From Eubacteriales bacterium (lineage in GTDB: Bacteria > Bacillota > Clostridia > Monoglobales > UMGS1388), in assembly GCA_029004515.1 (NCBI GenBank), contig JAQVYH010000011.1, forward strand, positions 1 to 41,974: DNA of 41,974 nt, read 5' to 3'. Positions 14,628 through 41,894 of this stretch are shown here, one piece after another. The notes beneath the pieces were generated by a model, which saw nothing but the letters and a program-made list of their open reading frames with translations, was not told the origin of the DNA and did not search any database. Positions within the stretch are counted from its first letter, which is position 1; each line of letters starts with the position of its first letter. Position numbers and translations under genes: made by a program.

Positions 14628-14656
14628 TTGACTTATCTCCCCGCTTCGGTTAAAAT
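14628..14656 (+). promoter_or_regulatory. Sigma-A promoter of the citrate synthase gene
   Basis: TTGACT (14628-14633) and TAAAAT (14651-14656) are separated by 17 bp, 15 bp after the protease stop. The spacer and -10 lie within a long inverted repeat listed separately. Confidence 0.8.
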
Positions 14657-14683
14657 AGTAACATACTATTTAATGAAGCGGGG
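14638..14683. promoter_or_regulatory. Nested palindrome across the citrate synthase promoter, candidate operator
   Basis: Outer arms CCCCGCTTC (14638-14646) and GAAGCGGGG (14675-14683) are perfect 9-bp inverted repeats. Inside them AAATAGT/ACTATTT forms a second dyad over the -10 box. The left outer arm is upstream of the predicted transcript start, so the full stem cannot form in RNA. That favours a protein-binding DNA site. The right arm also supplies the purine-rich ribosome-binding site (AAGCGGGG), so its sequence is under two constraints. The identity of any regulator is unknown. Confidence 0.55.
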
Positions 14684-14690
14684 ATTTATT

Positions 14691-16049
14691 ATGGACAGAA
14701 TGAGTGAATACTACGGTTTCTTGAGTGAAATCGCACAATCTATGAAGGCGAGAGAGGTAATTAATACTGAACTCTATAAGAAGTATAATGTAAAAAGAGG
14801 GCTTCGTAATGCTGATGGCACAGGTGTTTTAGTTGGTCTTACAGCAATTGGCGAAGTGCACGGATACATAGTTGATGAAAATGAAAAAGTAGATGTTGAG
14901 GGTAAGCTTTACTATCGTGGTATAGATGTTGAAGACCTTATCGCGAGGAAAGAGGCTGAAAATAGATTCGGTTTTGAAGAAACAATATTCTTGCTCCTTT
15001 TTGGCACTCTTCCTACAAAGGACGAACTTGAACACTTTAACAAGATGATGCAAGTTGCAAGAAATCTTCCTCGTGGTTTTGCAGAGGATATGATTATCCG
15101 TGTGCCATCAAAGGATATTATGAACAAGCTTGCTACCAGCGTTCTTGGACTTTATTGTTATGATGATAATCCTGATGAGAGAACAGTTGCTAATGTTCTT
15201 CGCCAGTCAGCAGAGCTTATTGCAAGAATGCCTGCTATGATTGCATATTGTTATAATGCAAAGCAGCATTATCTTGATAAAGAGAGCCTTCACATCCACG
15301 AACAGGATCCTTCACTCTCACTAGTGGAGAATTTTTTAAGCCTTATTCGTCCTGATAGAAAGTTTACAGACGAAGAAGCAAAGCTACTTGACACATGCCT
15401 TATCCTCCATGCTGAGCATGGTGGTGGTAACAACTCATCATTCACAGCCCATGTTATTTCATCAACAGGCACAGATACTTATTCGGCAGTTTCGGCATCA
15501 ATAGGTGCTCTTAAAGGACCTCGTCATGGCGGTGCTAATAAGGCTGTTATGGCAATGATGGATGACATCGAGGCTAATGTCAAGGATTGGAATAGCGATG
15601 ATGAAGTAGCAGCATATCTTGAAAAGATTCTCCGTAAGGAGGCTAATGATAATTCAGGTCTTATATATGGTATGGGTCATGCGGTTTATACCGTTTCCGA
15701 CCCACGCACAACCATTCTTAGGCAAAATGCAGAGCGCCTTGCATATGAGCGAGGATTTGAAAAGGAATATCAGCTTTATACTAATATTGAGCGCCTTTCA
15801 CCAGAAGTATTTTCAAAGGTTAGAGGTATGGATAAGAAAATCTGCGCAAATGTTGACCTTTATTCAGGCTTTGTATACAAGATTCTGGGTATCGACCCAG
15901 CTCTTTATACACCAATGTTTGCAATGGGACGTAGTGTTGGCTGGTGTGCCCATGTTATTGAAGAGGTTGCATTTGGCGGTAAGATTATTCGCCCAGCGTA
16001 TAAGAGTGTATGCAAAAGGGCGCAGTATATACCTTTAGAAGATAGATAA
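14691..16049 (+). CDS. gltA: Citrate synthase
   Basis: Condenses acetyl-CoA and oxaloacetate to citrate, feeding glutamate synthesis in an anaerobe. The start at ATG 14691 is used because AAGCGGGG sits 7 bp upstream and the promoter lies between 14628 and 14656, which excludes the longer frame. The product is 452 aa. Catalytic residues by family comparison are H243 (AEHGGGN), H330 (GMGHAVYTVSDPR) and D389 (ANVDLYSGF); GPRHGGANK carries a further conserved His (H279). The length is somewhat above the ~375 aa of compact Gram-positive enzymes, with an N-terminal extension. No aconitase or isocitrate dehydrogenase gene is adjacent. Confidence 0.95.
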   Translation: MDRMSEYYGFLSEIAQSMKAREVINTELYKKYNVKRGLRNADGTGVLVGLTAIGEVHGYIVDENEKVDVEGKLYYRGIDVEDLIARKEAENRFGFEETIFLLLFGTLPTKDELEHFNKMMQVARNLPRGFAEDMIIRVPSKDIMNKLATSVLGLYCYDDNPDERTVANVLRQSAELIARMPAMIAYCYNAKQHYLDKESLHIHEQDPSLSLVENFLSLIRPDRKFTDEEAKLLDTCLILHAEHGGGNNSSFTAHVISSTGTDTYSAVSASIGALKGPRHGGANKAVMAMMDDIEANVKDWNSDDEVAAYLEKILRKEANDNSGLIYGMGHAVYTVSDPRTTILRQNAERLAYERGFEKEYQLYTNIERLSPEVFSKVRGMDKKICANVDLYSGFVYKILGIDPALYTPMFAMGRSVGWCAHVIEEVAFGGKIIRPAYKSVCKRAQYIPLEDR

Positions 16050-16052
16050 ATC

Positions 16053-16176
16053 TTACGGGAGTGATAAAATGCACATAACATCTAAACCTCACCGCTCGTA
16101 GTATCTTAATACAACTTCGGGACGGGCAAAGCCCTTTCGGTTTAACTGCTATGCACTATTTTCTTGCACCCTTTTA
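16053..16176. repeat. Palindromic repeat element, unit A
   Basis: A 124-bp unit bounded by TTACGGGAGTGATAAAATGCAC at the left (22 bp, one short of being split here: TTACGGGAGTGATAAA then ATGCAC) and by GCACTATTTTCTTGCACC at the right, which are imperfect inverted repeats of each other. The interior has a GGGCAAAGCCC hairpin and AAACC/GGTTT arms. It is followed without a gap by unit B. No protein-coding frame is credible. Confidence 0.75.
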
Positions 16177-16302
16177 CGGGAGCGATAAAATGCACCGAAT
16201 GAACGAACTTCGGCTCTCGGAGCATCTTTATACACCGTCGGCAACGGCTTTTTTAAAGCCTCTCAGTTCGTCCCTTCTGCACTATTTTCTCGCACCCTTT
16301 TA
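16174..16302. repeat. Palindromic repeat element, unit B
   Basis: A 129-bp unit with the same left and right ends as unit A (one base different in each). The interior folds as an outer stem GAACGAACT (16201-16209) / AGTTCGTCC (16265-16273). Within it are the hairpins GCTCTCGGAGC and CCGTCGGCAACGG and a GGCTTTTTTAAAGCC stem. A homologous interior is present at 40925-40989 on the opposite strand. A short open frame across it encodes only low-complexity sequence and is not considered a gene. Confidence 0.78.
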
Positions 16303-16325: not shown

Positions 16326-16412
16326 TGTACTATTAATTGCCTTTGGCATGAATTGCACTTGTGAAATGAATTAAAACCTGCGGTTTCATGAATTGCCAAG
16401 TGGAAATTGTTG
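16326..16412. repeat. Array of short palindromes separated by ATGAATT
   Basis: ATGAATT occurs at 16348, 16366 and 16388. Each is followed by a different short inverted repeat: GCACTTGTG, AAACCTGCGGTTT and CCAAGTGG. A related AATTGCCTTTGGC unit precedes them at about 16335. The constant linker with changing palindromes suggests a small hairpin array of unknown role. The stretch 16413-16500 shows nothing further that I can interpret. Confidence 0.5.
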
Positions 16413-16504
16413 AAGAGAATCCTAGGCAAATTCAACCATTATTAATTTGAAAGTAATTCGATTCATAGAGCTGTAGCGAGAATTTATTTAAGTTACCCCC
16501 AATT

Positions 16505-16526
16505 ATTGACAACAATAGTTGTCAAT
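16505..16526. repeat. Perfect 9-bp inverted repeat
   Basis: ATTGACAAC and GTTGTCAAT flank a 4-nt AATA loop. There is no T run after it, so it is not a typical terminator; it could be a protein site or part of the repeat cluster. Confidence 0.5.
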
Positions 16527-16548
16527 TCATATTTAGCAATGCAATAGC

Positions 16549-26221: not shown

Positions 26222-26232
26222 GCGTAATAAAA

Positions 26233-26258
26233 GGGAAAGAAGTTAATTCTTCTTTCCC
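26233..26258. terminator. Terminator hairpin copy 1 (functional on minus strand)
   Basis: GGGAAAGAAG and CTTCTTTCCC form a perfect 10-bp stem around TTAATT. On the left an A4 run gives a U tract for minus-strand transcripts from the esterase gene side; on the right there is no T run. Confidence 0.75.
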
Positions 26259-26504
26259 TCAGACCGTCGAAAAAGTCGTTCAACCACAAGCAAAACAGAA
26301 AATATTTATCTCTTGCTTGTTCTATAAAAAATAATAATATATAATTATAATGGCGTAGGTTTTTCGATAAAACCTACGCCATTGCTTGCTTTCACCCTTC
26401 CCGACCTCTACCGTACCCTCGTACGCCGACGATGTCGGGAATGTCGAATTTAACTTCCTTTTTCGCAGTCTGCCAGCGTGTCTATAGGTTTATCTACACG
26501 CTGA
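26259..26504. mobile_element. Palindrome-rich MITE-like insertion between duplicated terminators
   Basis: A 246-bp AT/GC-mixed segment starting TCAGACCGTCGAAAAAG and ending CTACACGCTGA, with similar inverted ends: CAGACCGTCGAAAAAG at left and CTTTTTCGCAGTCTG at 26459-26473. Internal hairpins include ACAAGCAA/TTGCTTGT (26286-26320) and a 15-bp perfect stem AATGGCGTAGGTTTT with its complement (26349-26383). Two more are CCCGAC/GTCGGG enclosing CGTAC/GTACG (26400-26439) and AGCGTGT/ACACGCT at the right end. It carries no credible gene. Its flanks are identical copies of a terminator hairpin. Non-autonomous element is an inference; no transposase is nearby. Confidence 0.6.
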
Positions 26505-26536
26505 GGGAAAGAAGTTAATTCTTCTTTCCCTTTTTT
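26505..26536 (+). terminator. Terminator hairpin copy 2 (functional on plus strand)
   Basis: The same 26-bp hairpin as at 26233-26258, here followed by T6, giving a strong intrinsic terminator for plus-strand transcripts from the GH5 gene. Confidence 0.88.
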
Positions 26537-33357: not shown

Positions 33358-35973
33358 TTGGATAATCTGGAAAAAAGATACGAGCCCAACAAAGTTGAGA
33401 AGAAAATATATGATTTCTGGCAGGAGAACAACTGCTTCCACGCAGTTCCTGATAAGAATAAGAAGCCTTATACAATAGTTATTCCACCACCAAATGTTAC
33501 AGGTCAGCTCCATATGGGACATGCCCTTGACGAAACTCTTCAGGATATCCTTATTCGCCTTAAGAGAATGCAGGGTTATTCGGCTCTTTGGATGCCGGGT
33601 ACTGACCATGCCGGTATCGCTACACAGATTAAGGTTGAAGAAAATCTTCGCAAGGAAGGTCTTACAAGACATGACCTTGGCAGAGAAAAGTTCCTTGAAA
33701 AGGTTTGGGAATGGAAGCACCAGTACGGTAGCCGTATTGTTGAACAGCTCAAGAGCCTTGGCTCATCATGTGATTGGGAGCGCGAGCGCTTCACAATGGA
33801 CGAGGGCTACTCAAAGGCGGTTAAAGAAGTATTTGTTAACCTTTATAATAAAGACCTTATCTATCAGGGCAGCAGAATTATCAATTGGTGTCCAAGCTGT
33901 ACAACAGCTCTTTCTGATGCAGAGGTTGAATACTCACCAGAGCAGGGTAATTTTTGGCACATTAAGTATCCAATAAAGGATTCTGACGGTTTTGTTATCA
34001 TTGCAACAACAAGACCTGAAACTCTTCTTGGTGATACAGCTGTTGCAGTAAACCCTGAAGATGAAAGATATCAGAGCCTTGTGGGAAAGATGCTTATCCT
34101 CCCGCTTGTTGATAGGGAAATCCCTGTTATTGCAGATGATTATGTAGATAAAGAATTCGGTACAGGCTGTGTTAAGATTACACCTGCACATGACCCTAAC
34201 GACTTTGAGGTTGGACTTCGTCATGACCTTGAGCAGATTCGTGTTATGGATGATAATGGTGCAATTAATAATCTTGGCGGCAAGTACGCAGGTATGGATA
34301 GATACGAGGCAAGAAAGGCAATAGTTGCTGACCTTGAGGAGCTTGGACTCCTTGTTAAGGTTGAGCCTCATGAACATAATGTTGGTAAGTGTTATCGTTG
34401 TGGTACAACAGTTGAACCTATCACATCAAAGCAGTGGTTTGTTAAAATGGCACCTCTTGCAGAGGATGCAATCCGTGTTGTAAAAGAGGGCGAGATAGAA
34501 TTCGTTCCACCTAGATTTGCAAAGACATATCTTAACTGGATGGAAAATATCCACGATTGGTGTATTTCTCGTCAGCTTTGGTGGGGACACAGAATCCCTG
34601 CGTTCTACTGCCAGGACTGTGGCGAAACAACAGTTTCAAAGGATGAAGTTACAACCTGTCCAAAATGCGGCGGCAGGGTTATACAGGATAATGATGTTCT
34701 TGATACATGGTTCTCGTCAGCACTTTGGCCATTTGCTACATTGGGCTGGCCTGACAAGACAGAGGAGCTTGAATATTTCTATCCAACAAGTACTCTTGTA
34801 ACCGGTTATGATATTATCTTCTTCTGGGTTGCAAGAATGATTTTCAGTGGTCTTGAACATATGGGACAGGTTCCATTCAAAAAGGTGTTTATCCACGGTA
34901 TCGTTCGTGACTCACAGGGTAGAAAGATGTCCAAGTCATTGGGCAATGGTATCGACCCACTTGAAGTTATTGACCAGTATGGTGCAGATGCACTTAGATT
35001 TACTCTTGCAACAGGTAATGCACCTGGTAATGATATGCGTTTCTATAGCGAAAGAGTAGAGGCTAGCCGTAACTTTGCAAACAAGCTTTGGAACGCCGCA
35101 AGATTCGTTCTTATGAATCTTCCTGAGGATATGCCTGAGGTTGCATCTCTTCCGGAAAATCTTCGTATTGAGGATAAGTGGATTGTAAGCAAGCTCAATC
35201 GTCTTGCAAAGGAAGTTACAGATAATCTTGATAAGTTCGAGCTCGGTATTGCTGTACAGAAGCTTTATGACTTTATCTGGGACGAACTATGTGACTGGTA
35301 TATCGAAATGGTTAAGCCAAGACTTATGGAGGAAGAAGGCACAGATGCACAGCAGGTGCTTGTGTATGTTCTTTCACAGACACTCAAGCTTCTCCATCCA
35401 TTTATGCCATATATCACAGAGGAGATTTATTCACATCTTCCTGTTGAAAAGGGCAGCATAATGCTCAAGGATTATCCCAAGTATGATGAAGCGCTTAACT
35501 TTGAAACAGAAGAAAACAGCACAGAGGTTATTAAGAGTGCTATCCGTGCTATCAGAAATCTTCGTTCAGAGATGAATGTTCCACCATCAAAGAAGGCAAA
35601 GCTTATCATCGTTACAGATAAGACAGACATTTTCAGTCAGGGCGAAGCATTCTTCAAGAAGCTCGCTTGGGCAAGTGATGTTGTTGTTTCAAATAATAAG
35701 GATGAAGTTCCTGAAAACGCCATCATTGTTGTAACAGAGGGCGCAGAAATCTTTATGCCACAGGGTGACCTTGTAGATAAGGAAAAGGAACTTGAAAGAC
35801 TTAATAAAGAAAAAGAAAAGCTCATTGGCGAGATTAAGAGAGTTGAAGGTAAGCTTTCTAACCAAGGCTTTATCGCAAAAGCTCCTGACAAGGTAATCGA
35901 AGAAGAAAAAGCCAAGGGCGAAAAGTATAAAGAAATGCTTGAAAAAATAGAAGGACAGATTGCAAGCTTATGA
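33358..35973 (+). CDS. valS: Valine-tRNA ligase
   Basis: Class I synthetase charging tRNA-Val, with editing of misactivated threonine. The start is TTG 33358 (reading [21 protein letters not shown]) with AAAGGAAG 7 bp upstream; longer frames would start before the promoter. The product is 871 aa, normal. The HIGH motif is QLHMGHAL with His52; the CP1 editing domain includes [17 protein letters not shown]; zinc-knuckle-like CYRCGTT and CPKCGG segments are present. [12 protein letters not shown] begins at K523. A C-terminal coiled coil rich in Lys/Glu follows. No T-box leader is seen. The stop overlaps the folC start by ATGA, a conserved Firmicute pairing. Confidence 0.97.
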
Positions 35974-37190
35974 TGTATAATGAGGCTATAGAGTATATCC
36001 ACACTCGTAATATGTATGCTAAAAAGGACGGTCTTAATAATATCACCGCCCTATGCCAAGCCTTGGGTAATCCACAGGACAGGCTAAAGATTATTCATAT
36101 TGCAGGGACTAATGGGAAAGGCTCTGTTGCCGCTTTTATATCAACTTCACTAAAAATGGCGGGATACAGGGTAGGTACTTGTATATCGCCTTTTATTACG
36201 ATTTTTAATGAGCGTATCCAGATAAATGGCGAGTATATCTCGGATAGTGACCTAGCAGATTATACAACAAGGCTTGCCGATATCAATGTAGCCGTTACCG
36301 AGTTTGAATTTATTACAGCACTTGCGTTTATGTACTTTGCGGAAAAGGGTTGTGACTATGTGGTTTTGGAAGCAGGTATGGGTGGCAGATTTGATGCGAC
36401 AAATGTGATTAAAACCTCCGTTGCTTCGGTTCTTACCCTTATTGACTATGACCATATGCAGTTTCTTGGTGAAACAATCGAGGAGATTGCCAATCACAAG
36501 TGCGGAATAATCAAAAATGGTGGCAGGGTGTATTCGTATTATCCCCAGAGGGAAGAGGTGCAATCTGCTATAAAAAATACCTGTGAGCAGATGGATGCGA
36601 CTTTAACATATGCAAAACCAGTTGAAGATGCAGAATTTATCCTTGGGAAAACCACATTCAATTATGATGGTGATGTGTGGGAGCTTGGTATGGATGGGAA
36701 GTATCAGCCATATAACGGAGCGCTAGCGATTGAAGTATTAAAAGGATTGGGTATTGAAAAAAAGCATATCAAGGACGGACTGAAGACCGCCTTTATGCCT
36801 TGCCGATTCCAAGTTGCAGGGACTGATCCATATCTTATTTTCGATGGTGCACACAACATAAGCGGTTGTATGGCTCTTAGGGAGTCTATTGAGAAATATA
36901 TTGATACAAAACCTGTTATAATCTTTGGTATGTCTAGTGATAAGCAGTATAAGGAGTGCATAAAGATACTTGCGCCTCTTGCCAGCACCTTTGTTGTAAC
37001 TGGGTTTGAAAATATCCGTTCAACAGATAAGGATGTCCTTAGGTTAGCAGCAGAGGAGTATTGCGATAGTGTGATTTGCACCGATACAATTGCCCAAGCG
37101 ATGAAGCTGGATTTTTCGGGTCGTGACAGAATTGTTTGCGGTTCTCTCTATCTTGTGAGTGAGGGTGCAAGTCAGGTGGAAATGTCATGA
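35970..37190 (+). CDS. folC: Folylpolyglutamate synthase/dihydrofolate synthase
   Basis: Mur-ligase-type enzyme adding glutamate to folates in the cytoplasm. The 406-aa protein has the P-loop [16 protein letters not shown], the FISPH-like [34 protein letters not shown] and the C-terminal domain with [11 protein letters not shown]. The ATG is doubled and overlaps the valS stop. It ends before a bidirectional terminator. Confidence 0.95.
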
Positions 37191-37205: not shown

Positions 37206-37257
37206 GGGGCTGTAGCAAAACGATTTTTATAATCGGGTTGACTACAGCCTTTTTTTA
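37206..37257. terminator. Bidirectional terminator between folC and the cation exporter
   Basis: GGCTGTAG (37208-37215) and CTACAGCC (37242-37249) form the stem, with A7 on the left and T8 on the right. It separates two convergent genes. Confidence 0.88.
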
Positions 37258-39261: not shown

Positions 39262-39609
39262 ATGAAGGTAATTATGGAAACGATTGACAAAAGCCTAATA
39301 ATCCATATGTTCGGAGAGCTTGACCATCACTATTCAGAAGAAATCCGTGATAAGATAGATGCGAAAATTTGCGCTACCGATGTGAGTACACTTATACTTG
39401 AACTTTCAAATGTAGCATTTATGGATAGCTCTGGTATTGGTGTTCTTATGGGACGATACAGATTGATGCAAGCGCAGGGTGGCAGGGTTGTCATCGCAGG
39501 GATAAGCAAAAGCATTGAAAAGATATGGGATGTTTCTGGTCTTGGAAAGATTATCCCAAGATATTCGGATATCGCTCAGGCTTTGGGAGGAATGGAGGTA
39601 TTAAGGTGA
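39262..39609 (+). CDS. spoIIAA: Anti-sigma-F factor antagonist SpoIIAA
   Basis: STAS-domain protein (115 aa) that frees sigma-F in the forespore by binding SpoIIAB when unphosphorylated. The phosphorylation motif FMDSSGIGVLMGRY places the likely target Ser at residue 57. AGGAAGGAA lies upstream of the ATG. It is first of three overlapping genes in the conserved order; the stop overlaps the spoIIAB GTG by four bases. Confidence 0.96.
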   Translation: MKVIMETIDKSLIIHMFGELDHHYSEEIRDKIDAKICATDVSTLILELSNVAFMDSSGIGVLMGRYRLMQAQGGRVVIAGISKSIEKIWDVSGLGKIIPRYSDIAQALGGMEVLR

Positions 39610-40031
39610 CTAATGAAATGAAAGTACAATTTTTAAGTCGCTCGGTGAACGAGGGATTTGCTCGTCTGGCTGCGGCGGCGATGGTTATGCAATGCGATCC
39701 GACTCTTGAGGAGCTTTCGGACATAAAGGTTGCGGTATCAGAGGCGGTTACAAATTCTATTGTACATGGTTATCCGGGAGTTACAGGGTTTATCAATATG
39801 GAATGCAGACTCTTTGAGGACGGACTTGTGGAAATATCTGTTATAGACTATGGCAGGGGGATTGAGGATGTTGATAAGGCTCGTCAGCCACTCTTCACAA
39901 CGAATTCGGATGGAGAGAGGTCAGGAATGGGCTTTACTGTTATGGAAACTTTTATGGATAGCGTACAGGTGGAATCTGCCTTGGGGCGCGGCACAAGGGT
40001 TGTTATGCAAAAGCGACTGACCCCTCGATGA
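39606..40031 (+). CDS. spoIIAB: Anti-sigma-F factor and serine kinase SpoIIAB
   Basis: GHKL-type ATPase (141 aa) that binds and holds sigma-F and phosphorylates SpoIIAA. The start is GTG 39606 (MTNEMKVQFLSRSVNEGFAR), aligning with SpoIIAB N-termini and preceded by GGAGG; an upstream in-frame start would extend far into spoIIAA. N-box EAVTNSIVHGY, G1 DYGRGI and G2 SGMGFTVME are present. It overlaps spoIIAA and sigF by GTGA and ATGA respectively. Confidence 0.96.
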   Translation: MTNEMKVQFLSRSVNEGFARLAAAAMVMQCDPTLEELSDIKVAVSEAVTNSIVHGYPGVTGFINMECRLFEDGLVEISVIDYGRGIEDVDKARQPLFTTNSDGERSGMGFTVMETFMDSVQVESALGRGTRVVMQKRLTPR

Positions 40032-40784: not shown

Positions 40785-40812
40785 AAGGGAATTGCATATG
40801 CAATTCCCTTTT
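40785..40812 (+). terminator. Terminator palindrome after sigF
   Basis: A perfect 26-bp palindrome centred on GCATATGC (AAGGGAATTGCAT / ATGCAATTCCCTT) followed by TT; the T run is short, so strength is uncertain. Confidence 0.7.
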
Positions 40813-40820
40813 ATCATATT

Positions 40821-40900
40821 CTTAAATTCACACATTATCATTATGCGTCCTACACTATGTCTTAAATCTATACATTCCCATTATGCGTCCTACACTTTAG
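40821..40900. repeat. Two tandem ~40-bp repeats with an 18-bp identical core
   Basis: CTTAAAT...CATTATGCGTCCTACACT occurs twice in a row (cores at 40839-40856 and 40879-40896). A third copy of the 18-bp core is at 41070-41087. The surroundings are AT-rich and non-coding. Confidence 0.75.
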
Positions 40901-40913
40901 GGAATAGGTAAAA

Positions 40914-40999
40914 ATGCGTAGGATGGACAAACTGAGCCAACGGGTTATCCGAAGGTGTACACAGGTACACCGAGAGACGAAGTTTGTTCATAGCATAAT
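40914..40999 (-). repeat. Palindromic repeat element, third copy (related to unit B)
   Basis: On the minus strand GAACAAACTTCGTCTCTCGG (40989-40970) matches unit B at 18 of 20 bases, and CTCAGTTTGTCC (40936-40925) matches at 11 of 12. The outer stem GAACAAACT/AGTTTGTCC and a GGTGTAC/GTACACC hairpin can form. The middle differs from unit B. A 60-aa open frame across it is rejected as a gene. The element sits between copies 2 and 3 of the 18-bp repeat. Confidence 0.72.
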
Positions 41000-41016
41000 G
41001 GTAGTAATAATAAATA

Positions 41017-41040
41017 AGGATTTGCATTTTTGCAAATCCT
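41017..41040. terminator. Hairpin, possible terminator downstream of ylmH
   Basis: AGGATTTGCA (41017-41026) and TGCAAATCCT (41031-41040) form a perfect 10-bp stem around TTTT. The minus-strand side runs into T-rich sequence. It lies about 80 bp beyond the ylmH stop, so assignment is uncertain. Confidence 0.45.
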
Positions 41041-41069
41041 AACACTATCTTTTTTAATTTCCACATTAC

Positions 41070-41087
41070 CATTATGCGTCCTACACT
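41070..41087. repeat. Third copy of the 18-bp CATTATGCGTCCTACACT core
   Basis: Identical to the cores at 40839-40856 and 40879-40896. The flanks (TTTAATTTCCACATTAC) also resemble those copies. The rest of the 380-bp gap between sigF and ylmH holds no gene that I can support. Confidence 0.75.
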
Positions 41088-41118
41088 TTTTTAACATTCC
41101 CTATTAACATTCCATATC

Positions 41119-41856
41119 TTATTTGGGGGCTTTTATTGTTATAACCGTTCTGCCTTTTTTGGTAGTTCCATCAATTGATTCAATGATGAATCTGCCTCCG
41201 CCACGCAGGGAGATAATATCCCCTTGATTAACCATTTTGGACAGATTATTGCAGATGGTATGGTTTATCTGCACTTTGTCCGAATTAATCTTATCTGCCC
41301 CATCATTTCGAGATAGGTTATAAACACCGGAGATTATGCAATCAAGGCGCATTGATGAAATTATAACGGTTTTAGTATCAAATTCTGTTTCGCTTCTGCG
41401 AAGCTGTCTTATGCTCCTTTGGCTACAACTTGCATTCTGTCTGCCGATTTTAGTGAGATTCTGGAGAATATAGTTTGTAATTTCGCAAAGTACAACCATA
41501 TCACAACCATTATCATATACAACCATATCGCCGATTCTGTCACGCTTGATTCCAAGACCCATAACAGAACCCAGATAATCCCTGTGAGTGAGGGGCTTAT
41601 TGCCGCTTACTGCCACACGGATAACACAGATGGTGTCCTCAATATCCGCATTTGTGTATTCATCAGGCATTATAAAAAGCACCTTTCGTTCTGCTTCCTC
41701 ATAGCCTCCCTCAAAGGTGTGGCTAACTCCAATAAGCTGTGGCTGTGCCACAGCCTGCTGGCTGGGATCCAGAAACTCCGTGTGCATAGTAGTATAGTAT
41801 TTTTCGCTGTGGGCAATCTTGCCCTTAATGTTTGAAATTAATATTTTATCTTCCAT
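41119..41856 (-). CDS. ylmH: YlmH-like RNA-binding protein (S4 domain)
   Basis: 245 aa from ATG 41856. YlmH-family proteins have an N-terminal region with HTEFLDPSQQAVAQ (here intact), a central RRM-like domain and a C-terminal S4 RNA-binding domain (DKINSDKVQINH, VNQGDIISLRGGGRFIIES). YlmH works in ribosome rescue or late cell-division context in Firmicutes, often beside divIVA and sepF, which are absent here. No Shine-Dalgarno sequence is seen; the promoter ends 9 nt before the ATG, so the mRNA may be leaderless. An in-frame ATG at 41883 would give nine extra residues but lies inside the promoter. Confidence 0.85.
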   Translation of the reverse strand: MEDKILISNIKGKIAHSEKYYTTMHTEFLDPSQQAVAQPQLIGVSHTFEGGYEEAERKVLFIMPDEYTNADIEDTICVIRVAVSGNKPLTHRDYLGSVMGLGIKRDRIGDMVVYDNGCDMVVLCEITNYILQNLTKIGRQNASCSQRSIRQLRRSETEFDTKTVIISSMRLDCIISGVYNLSRNDGADKINSDKVQINHTICNNLSKMVNQGDIISLRGGGRFIIESIDGTTKKGRTVITIKAPK

Positions 41857-41865
41857 AATAAAATT

Positions 41866-41894
41866 ATTATAACAAATTATCATCCATAGTTCAA
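41866..41894 (-). promoter_or_regulatory. Promoter of ylmH, close to the start codon
   Basis: On the minus strand TTGAAC (41894-41889) and TATAAT (41871-41866) are 17 bp apart. The ATG follows nine bases after the -10 box. Confidence 0.72.

What the first reader, a model, noticed from the sequence alone, without database searches (positions are those of the whole stretch)
40914..40999. A distant third copy shares the interior fold with a G-C to A-T pair swap
Minus-strand 40989-40925 matches unit B at both ends of the inner stem, 24.7 kb away. The fifth stem pair is G16205-C16269 in unit B and A-T (40985/40929) in this copy, a double compensatory change. With the unit A/B end covariation, this supports a dispersed structured repeat family, possibly an unnamed ncRNA or REP/MITE-like element.
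Basis: partly seen in the sequence, partly recalled or inferred. Interest (0 to 1): 0.65.

Follow-up and report, generated by a model that had tools for sequence, protein, structure and literature searches.

The report
Folded repeat inserted after stop codons
A roughly 120-300 letter piece of non-coding DNA, conserved in its folded shape rather than its letters, has spread to dozens of gene ends in gut Clostridia genomes, nearly always the same way round and almost touching a stop codon; it matches no catalogued RNA family and its spreading machinery is unknown.

Summary
The A-T/G-C swap belongs to a dispersed family: 40 good copies in this 2.67 Mb draft genome, copies in 17 of 59 order/class relatives, none in 149 other genomes of the phylum, and at least 80 contigs of ruminant-gut Clostridia MAGs. 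The true element (window 40900-41102) is a three-way junction: closing stem P1, long arm P2, and core stem P3 carrying hairpin P4 and a variable hairpin P5. Covariation beats all 500 shuffles. The folding strand is the CGAGAG strand (window + strand for this copy). Copies sit in a fixed orientation a median 5 nt after the stop codon of a gene transcribed on the opposite strand, usually beside a palindromic terminator that often shares its end sequence. Near-identical 285-295 bp units recur within single genomes, and the rpoD copy of one species is missing from 29 relatives, so the element spreads. No Rfam, phage or plasmid match, no ISL3 transposase; Y1/RAYT transposases are absent from several copy-rich genomes. 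Best reading: a new BOX/ERIC-like non-autonomous repeat that occupies the terminator slot and moves through a folded single strand. The mobilising machinery and the nature of that strand (RNA or ssDNA) are not shown.

The parts
40900..41102 (+). Whole third copy: module M (P1-P3/P4/P5-P2-P1), read on its folding (CGAGAG) strand
   Evidence: sequence; boundaries from P1 pairing and alignment A3
40900..40922 (+). P1 5' strand GGGAATAGGTAAAAATGCGTAGG, pairs with 41080-41102
   Evidence: sequence; P1 helix
40923..40992 (+). Core P3/P4/P5: P3 = 40923-40933 with 40981-40991; tandem G.A 40934-40935/40979-40980; covarying pair 40936-40978; P4 = 40954-40960 with 40965-40971; internal loop CGAA 40950-40953 / GAGA 40972-40975
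   Evidence: CM hit, 79 bits; pair counts
40993..41077 (+). P2 arm: GCATAATGG 40993-41001 pairs with CCATTATGC 41069-41077; inner hairpin 41017-41040
   Evidence: sequence; P2 helix, 8 of 10 pairs with double changes
41080..41102 (+). P1 3' strand CCTACACTTTTTTAACATTCCC; this end faces the ylmH stop codon
   Evidence: sequence
40816..40896 (+). Two partial tandem copies of the P2-3'/P1-3' end (41-nt direct repeats of 41047-41087)
   Evidence: the repeat finder family D1
40785..40812 (+). Palindromic terminator-like hairpin AAGGGAATTGCATATGCAATTCCCTTTT after the sigma-factor gene, on the outer side of M
   Evidence: sequence
16053..16176 (-). Unit A: short form without P2 (CM core 16077-16149, - strand), about 6 nt after the citrate synthase stop codon
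   Evidence: (D2/D8)
16174..16302 (-). Unit B: short form without P2 (CM core 16198-16275, - strand), tandem to A
14628..16049 (+). Citrate synthase gene; its stop codon abuts unit A
   Evidence: Pfam PF00285
40028..40738 (+). Sporulation-type sigma factor gene upstream of copy C (likely sigF; it follows an anti-sigma-like ATPase ORF 39525-40031)
   Evidence: Pfam Sigma70 r2/r3/r4, HATPase_c_2
41119..41883 (-). ylmH-like gene; its stop codon is 16 nt from the end of copy C
   Evidence: Pfam YlmH_RBD
37206..37256 (+). Solo T1 palindromic terminator repeat GGGGCTGTAGCAAAACG...GACTACAGCC + T-run after the stop codon of ORF 35970-37190

Best explanation
It is a non-autonomous dispersed repeat (module M, about 120-260 bp, often moving with a palindromic terminator T1 as a 285-295 bp unit). 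One strand folds into a conserved three-way junction: P1 closes it; P3 carries tandem G.A pairs (probably sheared), the fixed hairpin P4 with a CGAA/GAGA internal loop, and a free-to-vary hairpin P5; P2 carries an inner hairpin. Copies occupy the slot of the intrinsic terminator just 3' of a stop codon, with the folding strand antisense to that gene. I infer that an unidentified trans-acting machinery recognises the folded strand, more likely single-stranded DNA than RNA, and places new copies at palindromic terminators. Once there the element becomes part of the gene's 3' UTR and terminator region. Shown: family, structure, folding strand, placement, orientation, within-genome spread, species-level presence/absence. 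Inferred: terminator targeting, single-strand recognition, movement in trans.
For: 40 copies here, 17 of 59 relatives with up to about 40 copies each, 0 of 149 other phylum genomes. Covariation above all shuffles in core and full element. Folding strand: G.U 34 vs A.C 5, replicated in 91 other copies for P2+P3 (122 vs 11); lower energy in 55 of 56 copies. Placement: stop codon to element start, median 5 nt, 44 of 50 within 20 nt; native terminators lie at a median 9 nt; neighbouring gene antisense to the folding strand in 57 of 64. T1-like hairpin next to the far end in 36 of 51 copies vs 2.4 expected, sharing the element's end in 23 vs 0.76 expected. Copies about 94-97% identical over 277-295 bp within genomes with sharp ends. 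rpoD copy present in G040, absent in 29 relatives. No promoter excess upstream on the folding strand (6 vs 4.4 expected).
Against: No mobilising gene identified; no target-site duplication seen; no precise filled/empty pair at one site between near-identical genomes. Some copies break the simple rule: 6 of 50 start more than 20 nt from a stop, 7 of 64 are in the other gene arrangement, and G040's rpoD copy has no end-matched T1. The strand asymmetry fits RNA as well as ssDNA; DNA parameters also favour the same strand in 53 of 56 copies, so this does not discriminate. A weak promoter excess inside M on the folding strand (21 vs 11.2, shuffle maximum 18) is unexplained.
Confidence: 0.52

Rival explanations
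1. A structured RNA made from the folding strand, antisense to the 3' end of the neighbouring gene, that works as a regulator or as a terminator/insulator for convergent transcription; copies spread by ordinary recombination.
For: G.U-rich pairing, tandem G.A motifs and conserved loops look like RNA. The folding-strand 3' end is a GC clamp followed by T-rich DNA, like an intrinsic terminator (60% T over 8 nt). 39 of 64 copies have an upstream gene in that sense.
Against: No promoter excess upstream; a terminator hairpin usually lies just upstream and would block readthrough; 25 of 64 copies have no upstream gene in that sense; patchy distribution and recent near-identical copies suggest a selfish or mobile origin.
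Confidence: 0.22
2. A classical MITE of a DDE-transposase insertion sequence, bounded by AAGGGGCYGTAGCAAAATG-type terminal inverted repeats of the M+T1 unit.
For: Units end in near-perfect 19-bp inverted repeats in SUG1177 and similar ends elsewhere; bacterial MITEs are small, structured and dispersed (PMC2229807).
Against: No target duplications visible; no pair of such ends around an ORF in this genome; no ISL3 transposase in 12 genomes; fixed placement and orientation at stop codons, and multi-helix covariation on one strand, are not expected of a MITE.
Confidence: 0.15
3. A REP/BIME-type element moved by a RAYT (Y1 transposase).
For: All six genomes with long RAYT-like proteins (G000, G013, G026, G040, G045, G059) carry the repeat, and 0 of 42 repeat-free genomes have one.
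Against: Copy-rich G006 (17 copies) and its genus-mates G011 and G020, plus G048 and G050, have no Y1_Tnp match at all. RAYT genes of this genome are flanked by their own inverted repeats (GGGGACGTGCC..., GGGGACGGTACG...), and no copy of the element lies on that contig. The element is far larger than a REP.
Confidence: 0.07
4. Chance similarity or a shared coding sequence.
Against: 0 reversed-control hits, 0 of 149 phylum controls, copies lie at gene ends outside long reading frames.
Confidence: 0.01

Closest known systems
BOX elements of Streptococcus pneumoniae (PMC3049150)
   Same: Modular, dispersed, intergenic, strongly folded small repeats with a variable internal module; no own transposase
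   Different: Different host group; no direct model comparison made; ours is a three-way junction with one constrained strand, fixed orientation, and a median 5 nt from a stop codon
SPRITE repeats of S. pneumoniae (PMC3049150)
   Same: Terminator-like dispersed repeats enriched downstream of genes; our T1 palindromes resemble this kind
   Different: SPRITE is a single hairpin with a T-rich tract; M is a multi-helix structure next to such a terminator
ERIC/IRU, NEMIS, RUP and other bacterial MITEs (PMC2229807)
   Same: 100-200 bp non-autonomous repeats with inverted-repeat ends and folded transcripts
   Different: No target duplication seen here; one strand carries the conserved fold; strict placement and orientation
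REP/BIME with RAYT (PMC2817692)
   Same: Palindromes dispersed in intergenic regions; tandem arrays occur
   Different: No dependence on Y1 transposase; size and structure differ
Integron attC sites (own knowledge, lead only)
   Same: Lie just after stop codons; the bottom strand folds and carries the constraint; variable terminal loop
   Different: No RYYYAAC/GTTRRRY ends seen by eye; copies lie singly beside chromosomal housekeeping genes, not in cassette arrays; no integrase link tested

Membership tests
REP element with RAYT | Presence of a RAYT (Y1_Tnp) in carrier genomes | tested here: not met
   G006, G011, G020, G048 and G050 carry copies and have no PF01797 match; genomes are 70-89% complete
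REP element with RAYT | Repeats flank the RAYT gene | tested here: not met
   Own RAYTs on contig C78 have their own inverted repeats; no copy of the element on that contig
MITE of a DDE insertion sequence | Terminal inverted repeats | tested here: met
   M+T1 units in SUG1177: AAGGAGCCGTAGCAAAATG ... CATTTTGCTACGGCTCCTT
MITE of a DDE insertion sequence | Target-site duplication | tested here: not met
   None seen by inspection at the ends of near-identical copies; no exact empty sites available
MITE of a DDE insertion sequence | Parental IS with the same ends in the genome | tested here: inconclusive
   No end pair enclosing an ORF in this draft genome; ISL3 absent in 12 genomes; other IS families not tested; draft assemblies break at repeats
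Described RNA family (Rfam 15) | Match at gathering score | tested here: not met
   No match in the window or to the element in 20 further loci
Structured nucleic acid of one strand | Covariation above controls and strand asymmetry | tested here: met
Intrinsic terminator | GC-rich hairpin followed by a T tract in the gene's own sense | tested here: inconclusive
   A hairpin lies next to M in 36 of 51 copies; the end of M itself in gene sense is followed by A-rich DNA, and by T-rich DNA only in the antisense direction
Integron attC | R''/R' ends RYYYAAC ... GTTRRRY recombined by IntI | not tested
   Only looked at by eye; no integrase search done
BOX/ERIC-like small dispersed repeat (as a kind) | Multi-copy, intergenic, non-coding, folded, no own transposase | tested here: met

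The most novel reading that the evidence does not exclude
A mobile element without a protein whose moving form is the folded bottom strand of a gene's 3' end (single-stranded DNA, or cDNA of an mRNA 3' UTR). It hops from terminator to terminator and thereby lands right after stop codons in the same orientation, using a machinery not linked to any known transposase family.
Probability: 0.22. Interest if true: 0.82.

Novelty: new variant of a known kind. Interest (0 to 1): 0.6.

Why it matters
Small dispersed repeats such as ERIC and BOX have been known for decades without a clear mechanism of spread. This family combines an unusually well defined fold, one clearly constrained strand and a strict landing place at gene ends, so hypotheses about single-strand movement and terminator targeting become testable. 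It also alters the 3' ends of dozens of genes per genome, including rpoD in one species and a citrate synthase gene here, in common ruminant-gut bacteria, and is a repeat near which many draft contigs of these genomes end.

Tried and rejected
Known RNA family: rejected. RAYT/REP: tested, not required. ISL3 transposase, suggested by the GGGGCTGTAGCAAAATG-like ends: none in 12 genomes. Phage or plasmid carriage: no match in phage or plasmid records, one viral-contig hit. Own promoter upstream on the folding strand: not enriched. RNA versus ssDNA by energy parameters: does not discriminate. An early pairing 47-78 in P4a was wrong; 14-78 (A-U 14, G-C 9, no exception) replaces it. Hammerhead-like and attC readings were considered by eye only. 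Literature: five term searches returned no description of such a repeat in Clostridia; one further query was malformed. The 3161 candidate structured RNAs of PMC8040213 could not be compared by sequence.

Full report
Check of the observation. The bases are as stated: G16205-C16269 in unit B, and A40985-T40929 (minus-strand letters) in the third copy. The arm pattern GAACRAACTTCGNCTCTCGG with up to 3 mismatches occurs 26 times in the window's genome (2.67 Mb, 215 contigs), with no hit for the reversed control. A covariance model of the core finds 40 copies at E<5e-6, including all three in the window. The swapped pair is column 7/85 of the alignment: A-U 13, G-C 9, one exception.

Structure. 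In 23 copies of this genome, 96.9% of the cells of the refined core structure pair; 51 cells show changes on both sides against 14.8 in shuffles, 0 of 500 shuffles reaching it, and sliding the partners destroys the pairing. One pair (columns 14/78) is A-U in 14 and G-C in 9 copies without exception. Next to it lie two nearly invariant G.A/A.G positions in the 5'-YGAR-3' context typical of sheared tandem G.A pairs (established knowledge; geometry not tested here). RNAalifold on 17 full elements from many genomes finds the whole three-way junction unaided: P1, P3, P2, P4, P5, with 22 pairs showing double changes. A count on 36 fixed pairs gives 98.8% paired and 63 double-change cells against 16.4. 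P5 varies freely in length and sequence; P4 with its CGAA/GAGA internal loop is nearly fixed. Short forms lacking P2 exist (units A and B).

Which strand. On the CGAGAG strand the core has 34 G.U wobbles and 5 A.C mismatches. In 91 further copies P3 and P2 together have 122 G.U and 11 A.C. The computed folding energy is lower on this strand in 55 of 56 full elements, by 10.9 kcal/mol on average. DNA parameters give the same sign in 53 of 56, so RNA and ssDNA cannot be told apart this way.

Placement. In genome-contig loci the gene next to the P1 3' end runs antisense to the folding strand in 57 of 64 usable cases. From the stop codon of a long ORF to the element start the median is 5 nt, and 44 of 50 lie within 20 nt. 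Native terminator-like hairpins of genes without the element lie at a median 9 nt (46 of 479 genes had one by a strict test). So the element sits where terminators sit. In this genome most of 30 copies show the same, including unit A after citrate synthase and copy C after ylmH; copy C lies between convergent sigF-like and ylmH-like genes. On the far side, 36 of 51 copies have a hairpin (2.4 expected), and in 23 of 51 the flank shares the element's own end sequence (0.76 expected). That palindrome, T1, also occurs alone after stop codons, for example at window 37206-37256.

Spread. Carriers: 17 of 59 relatives in the order and class, patchily, with up to about 40 copies; none of 149 other genomes drawn from the phylum; at least 80 contigs of ruminant-gut Clostridia MAGs, the scan having stopped at its limit; one viral contig; no phage or plasmid record. 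Within single genomes copies are about 94-97% identical over 277-295 bp with sharp ends, while flanks are unrelated: own L005/L006, RGIG3042 and SUG1177. Tandem modules occur (L117, L141, L198, L080). After rpoD, G040 has a copy and 29 relatives do not; one of them (G050) has a bare T1 there.

Mechanism. Shown: a dispersed, folded, strand-constrained, gene-end-specific repeat that varies in presence between species. Inferred: new copies land at palindromic terminators, which explains both the stop-codon proximity and the fixed orientation relative to T1. Because the gene-sense strand is the one surely transcribed (the element lies between stop codon and terminator) yet the opposite strand carries the fold, and because no promoter excess is seen upstream on that strand, single-stranded DNA is the more economical substrate. 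This last step is the weakest. Some copies do not fit the terminator-targeting rule neatly: G040's rpoD copy lacks an end-matched T1, and 6 of 50 starts lie more than 20 nt from a stop.

Rivals. RAYT/REP: six genomes with long RAYTs all carry the repeat, a suggestive association, but copy-rich genomes lack any Y1 transposase, and the RAYTs here have their own inverted repeats. DDE MITE: inverted-repeat ends exist, but no target duplication was seen, no end pair encloses an ORF and there is no ISL3 transposase. Structured RNA gene: possible; needs RNA-seq.

Comparison with the known. By behaviour it is closest to BOX, SPRITE and ERIC-type repeats (PMC3049150, PMC2229807). Membership in none of these was established here, and it has no Rfam match. 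The combination of a three-way junction, a single constrained strand and strict stop-codon proximity is, to my knowledge and in the literature searched, not described.

Noticed in passing
L245 (C82), L246 (C10), L247 (C110), L010: A second repeat (about 90 nt, AACATTTACTATAGTAAATGTT...GCCTGAACGCAAGTGTTTTGCGAAGCAAAAAGTGCGATAGTGAAGGC) is nested inside or next to copies of the element, in several cases inside P4.
   Followed up: partly
window 16336-16530 and L022: A third multi-hairpin repeat with recurring ATGAATTG spacers between small hairpins follows unit B and a truncated copy on contig C8.
   Followed up: no
window 26232-26259 and 26504-26531: Two identical 28-nt palindromes AGGGAAAGAAGTTAATTCTTCTTTCCCT, 272 nt apart start to start, between two convergent genes.
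   Followed up: no
L030 (contig C78) 5536-6486 and 7982-8855; L028 (contig C17): Two RAYT-like genes, each flanked by its own inverted repeats, and a third with an in-frame stop; they look like a separate REP/RAYT system of this genome.
   Followed up: partly
L007, L025, L247: Ends of what looks like an insertion sequence (CTGAACAAGTCCAGTAAAAACGGACAA...) lie in or beside copies of the element three times, near contig ends.
   Followed up: no
All six relatives with long RAYT-like proteins carry the element and none of the 42 element-free genomes has one; possibly shared ecology, possibly a mechanistic link.
   Followed up: partly
inside M, folding strand (56 elements): Promoter-like hexamer pairs are found in 21 of 56 elements against 11.2 expected (shuffle maximum 18).
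   Followed up: no
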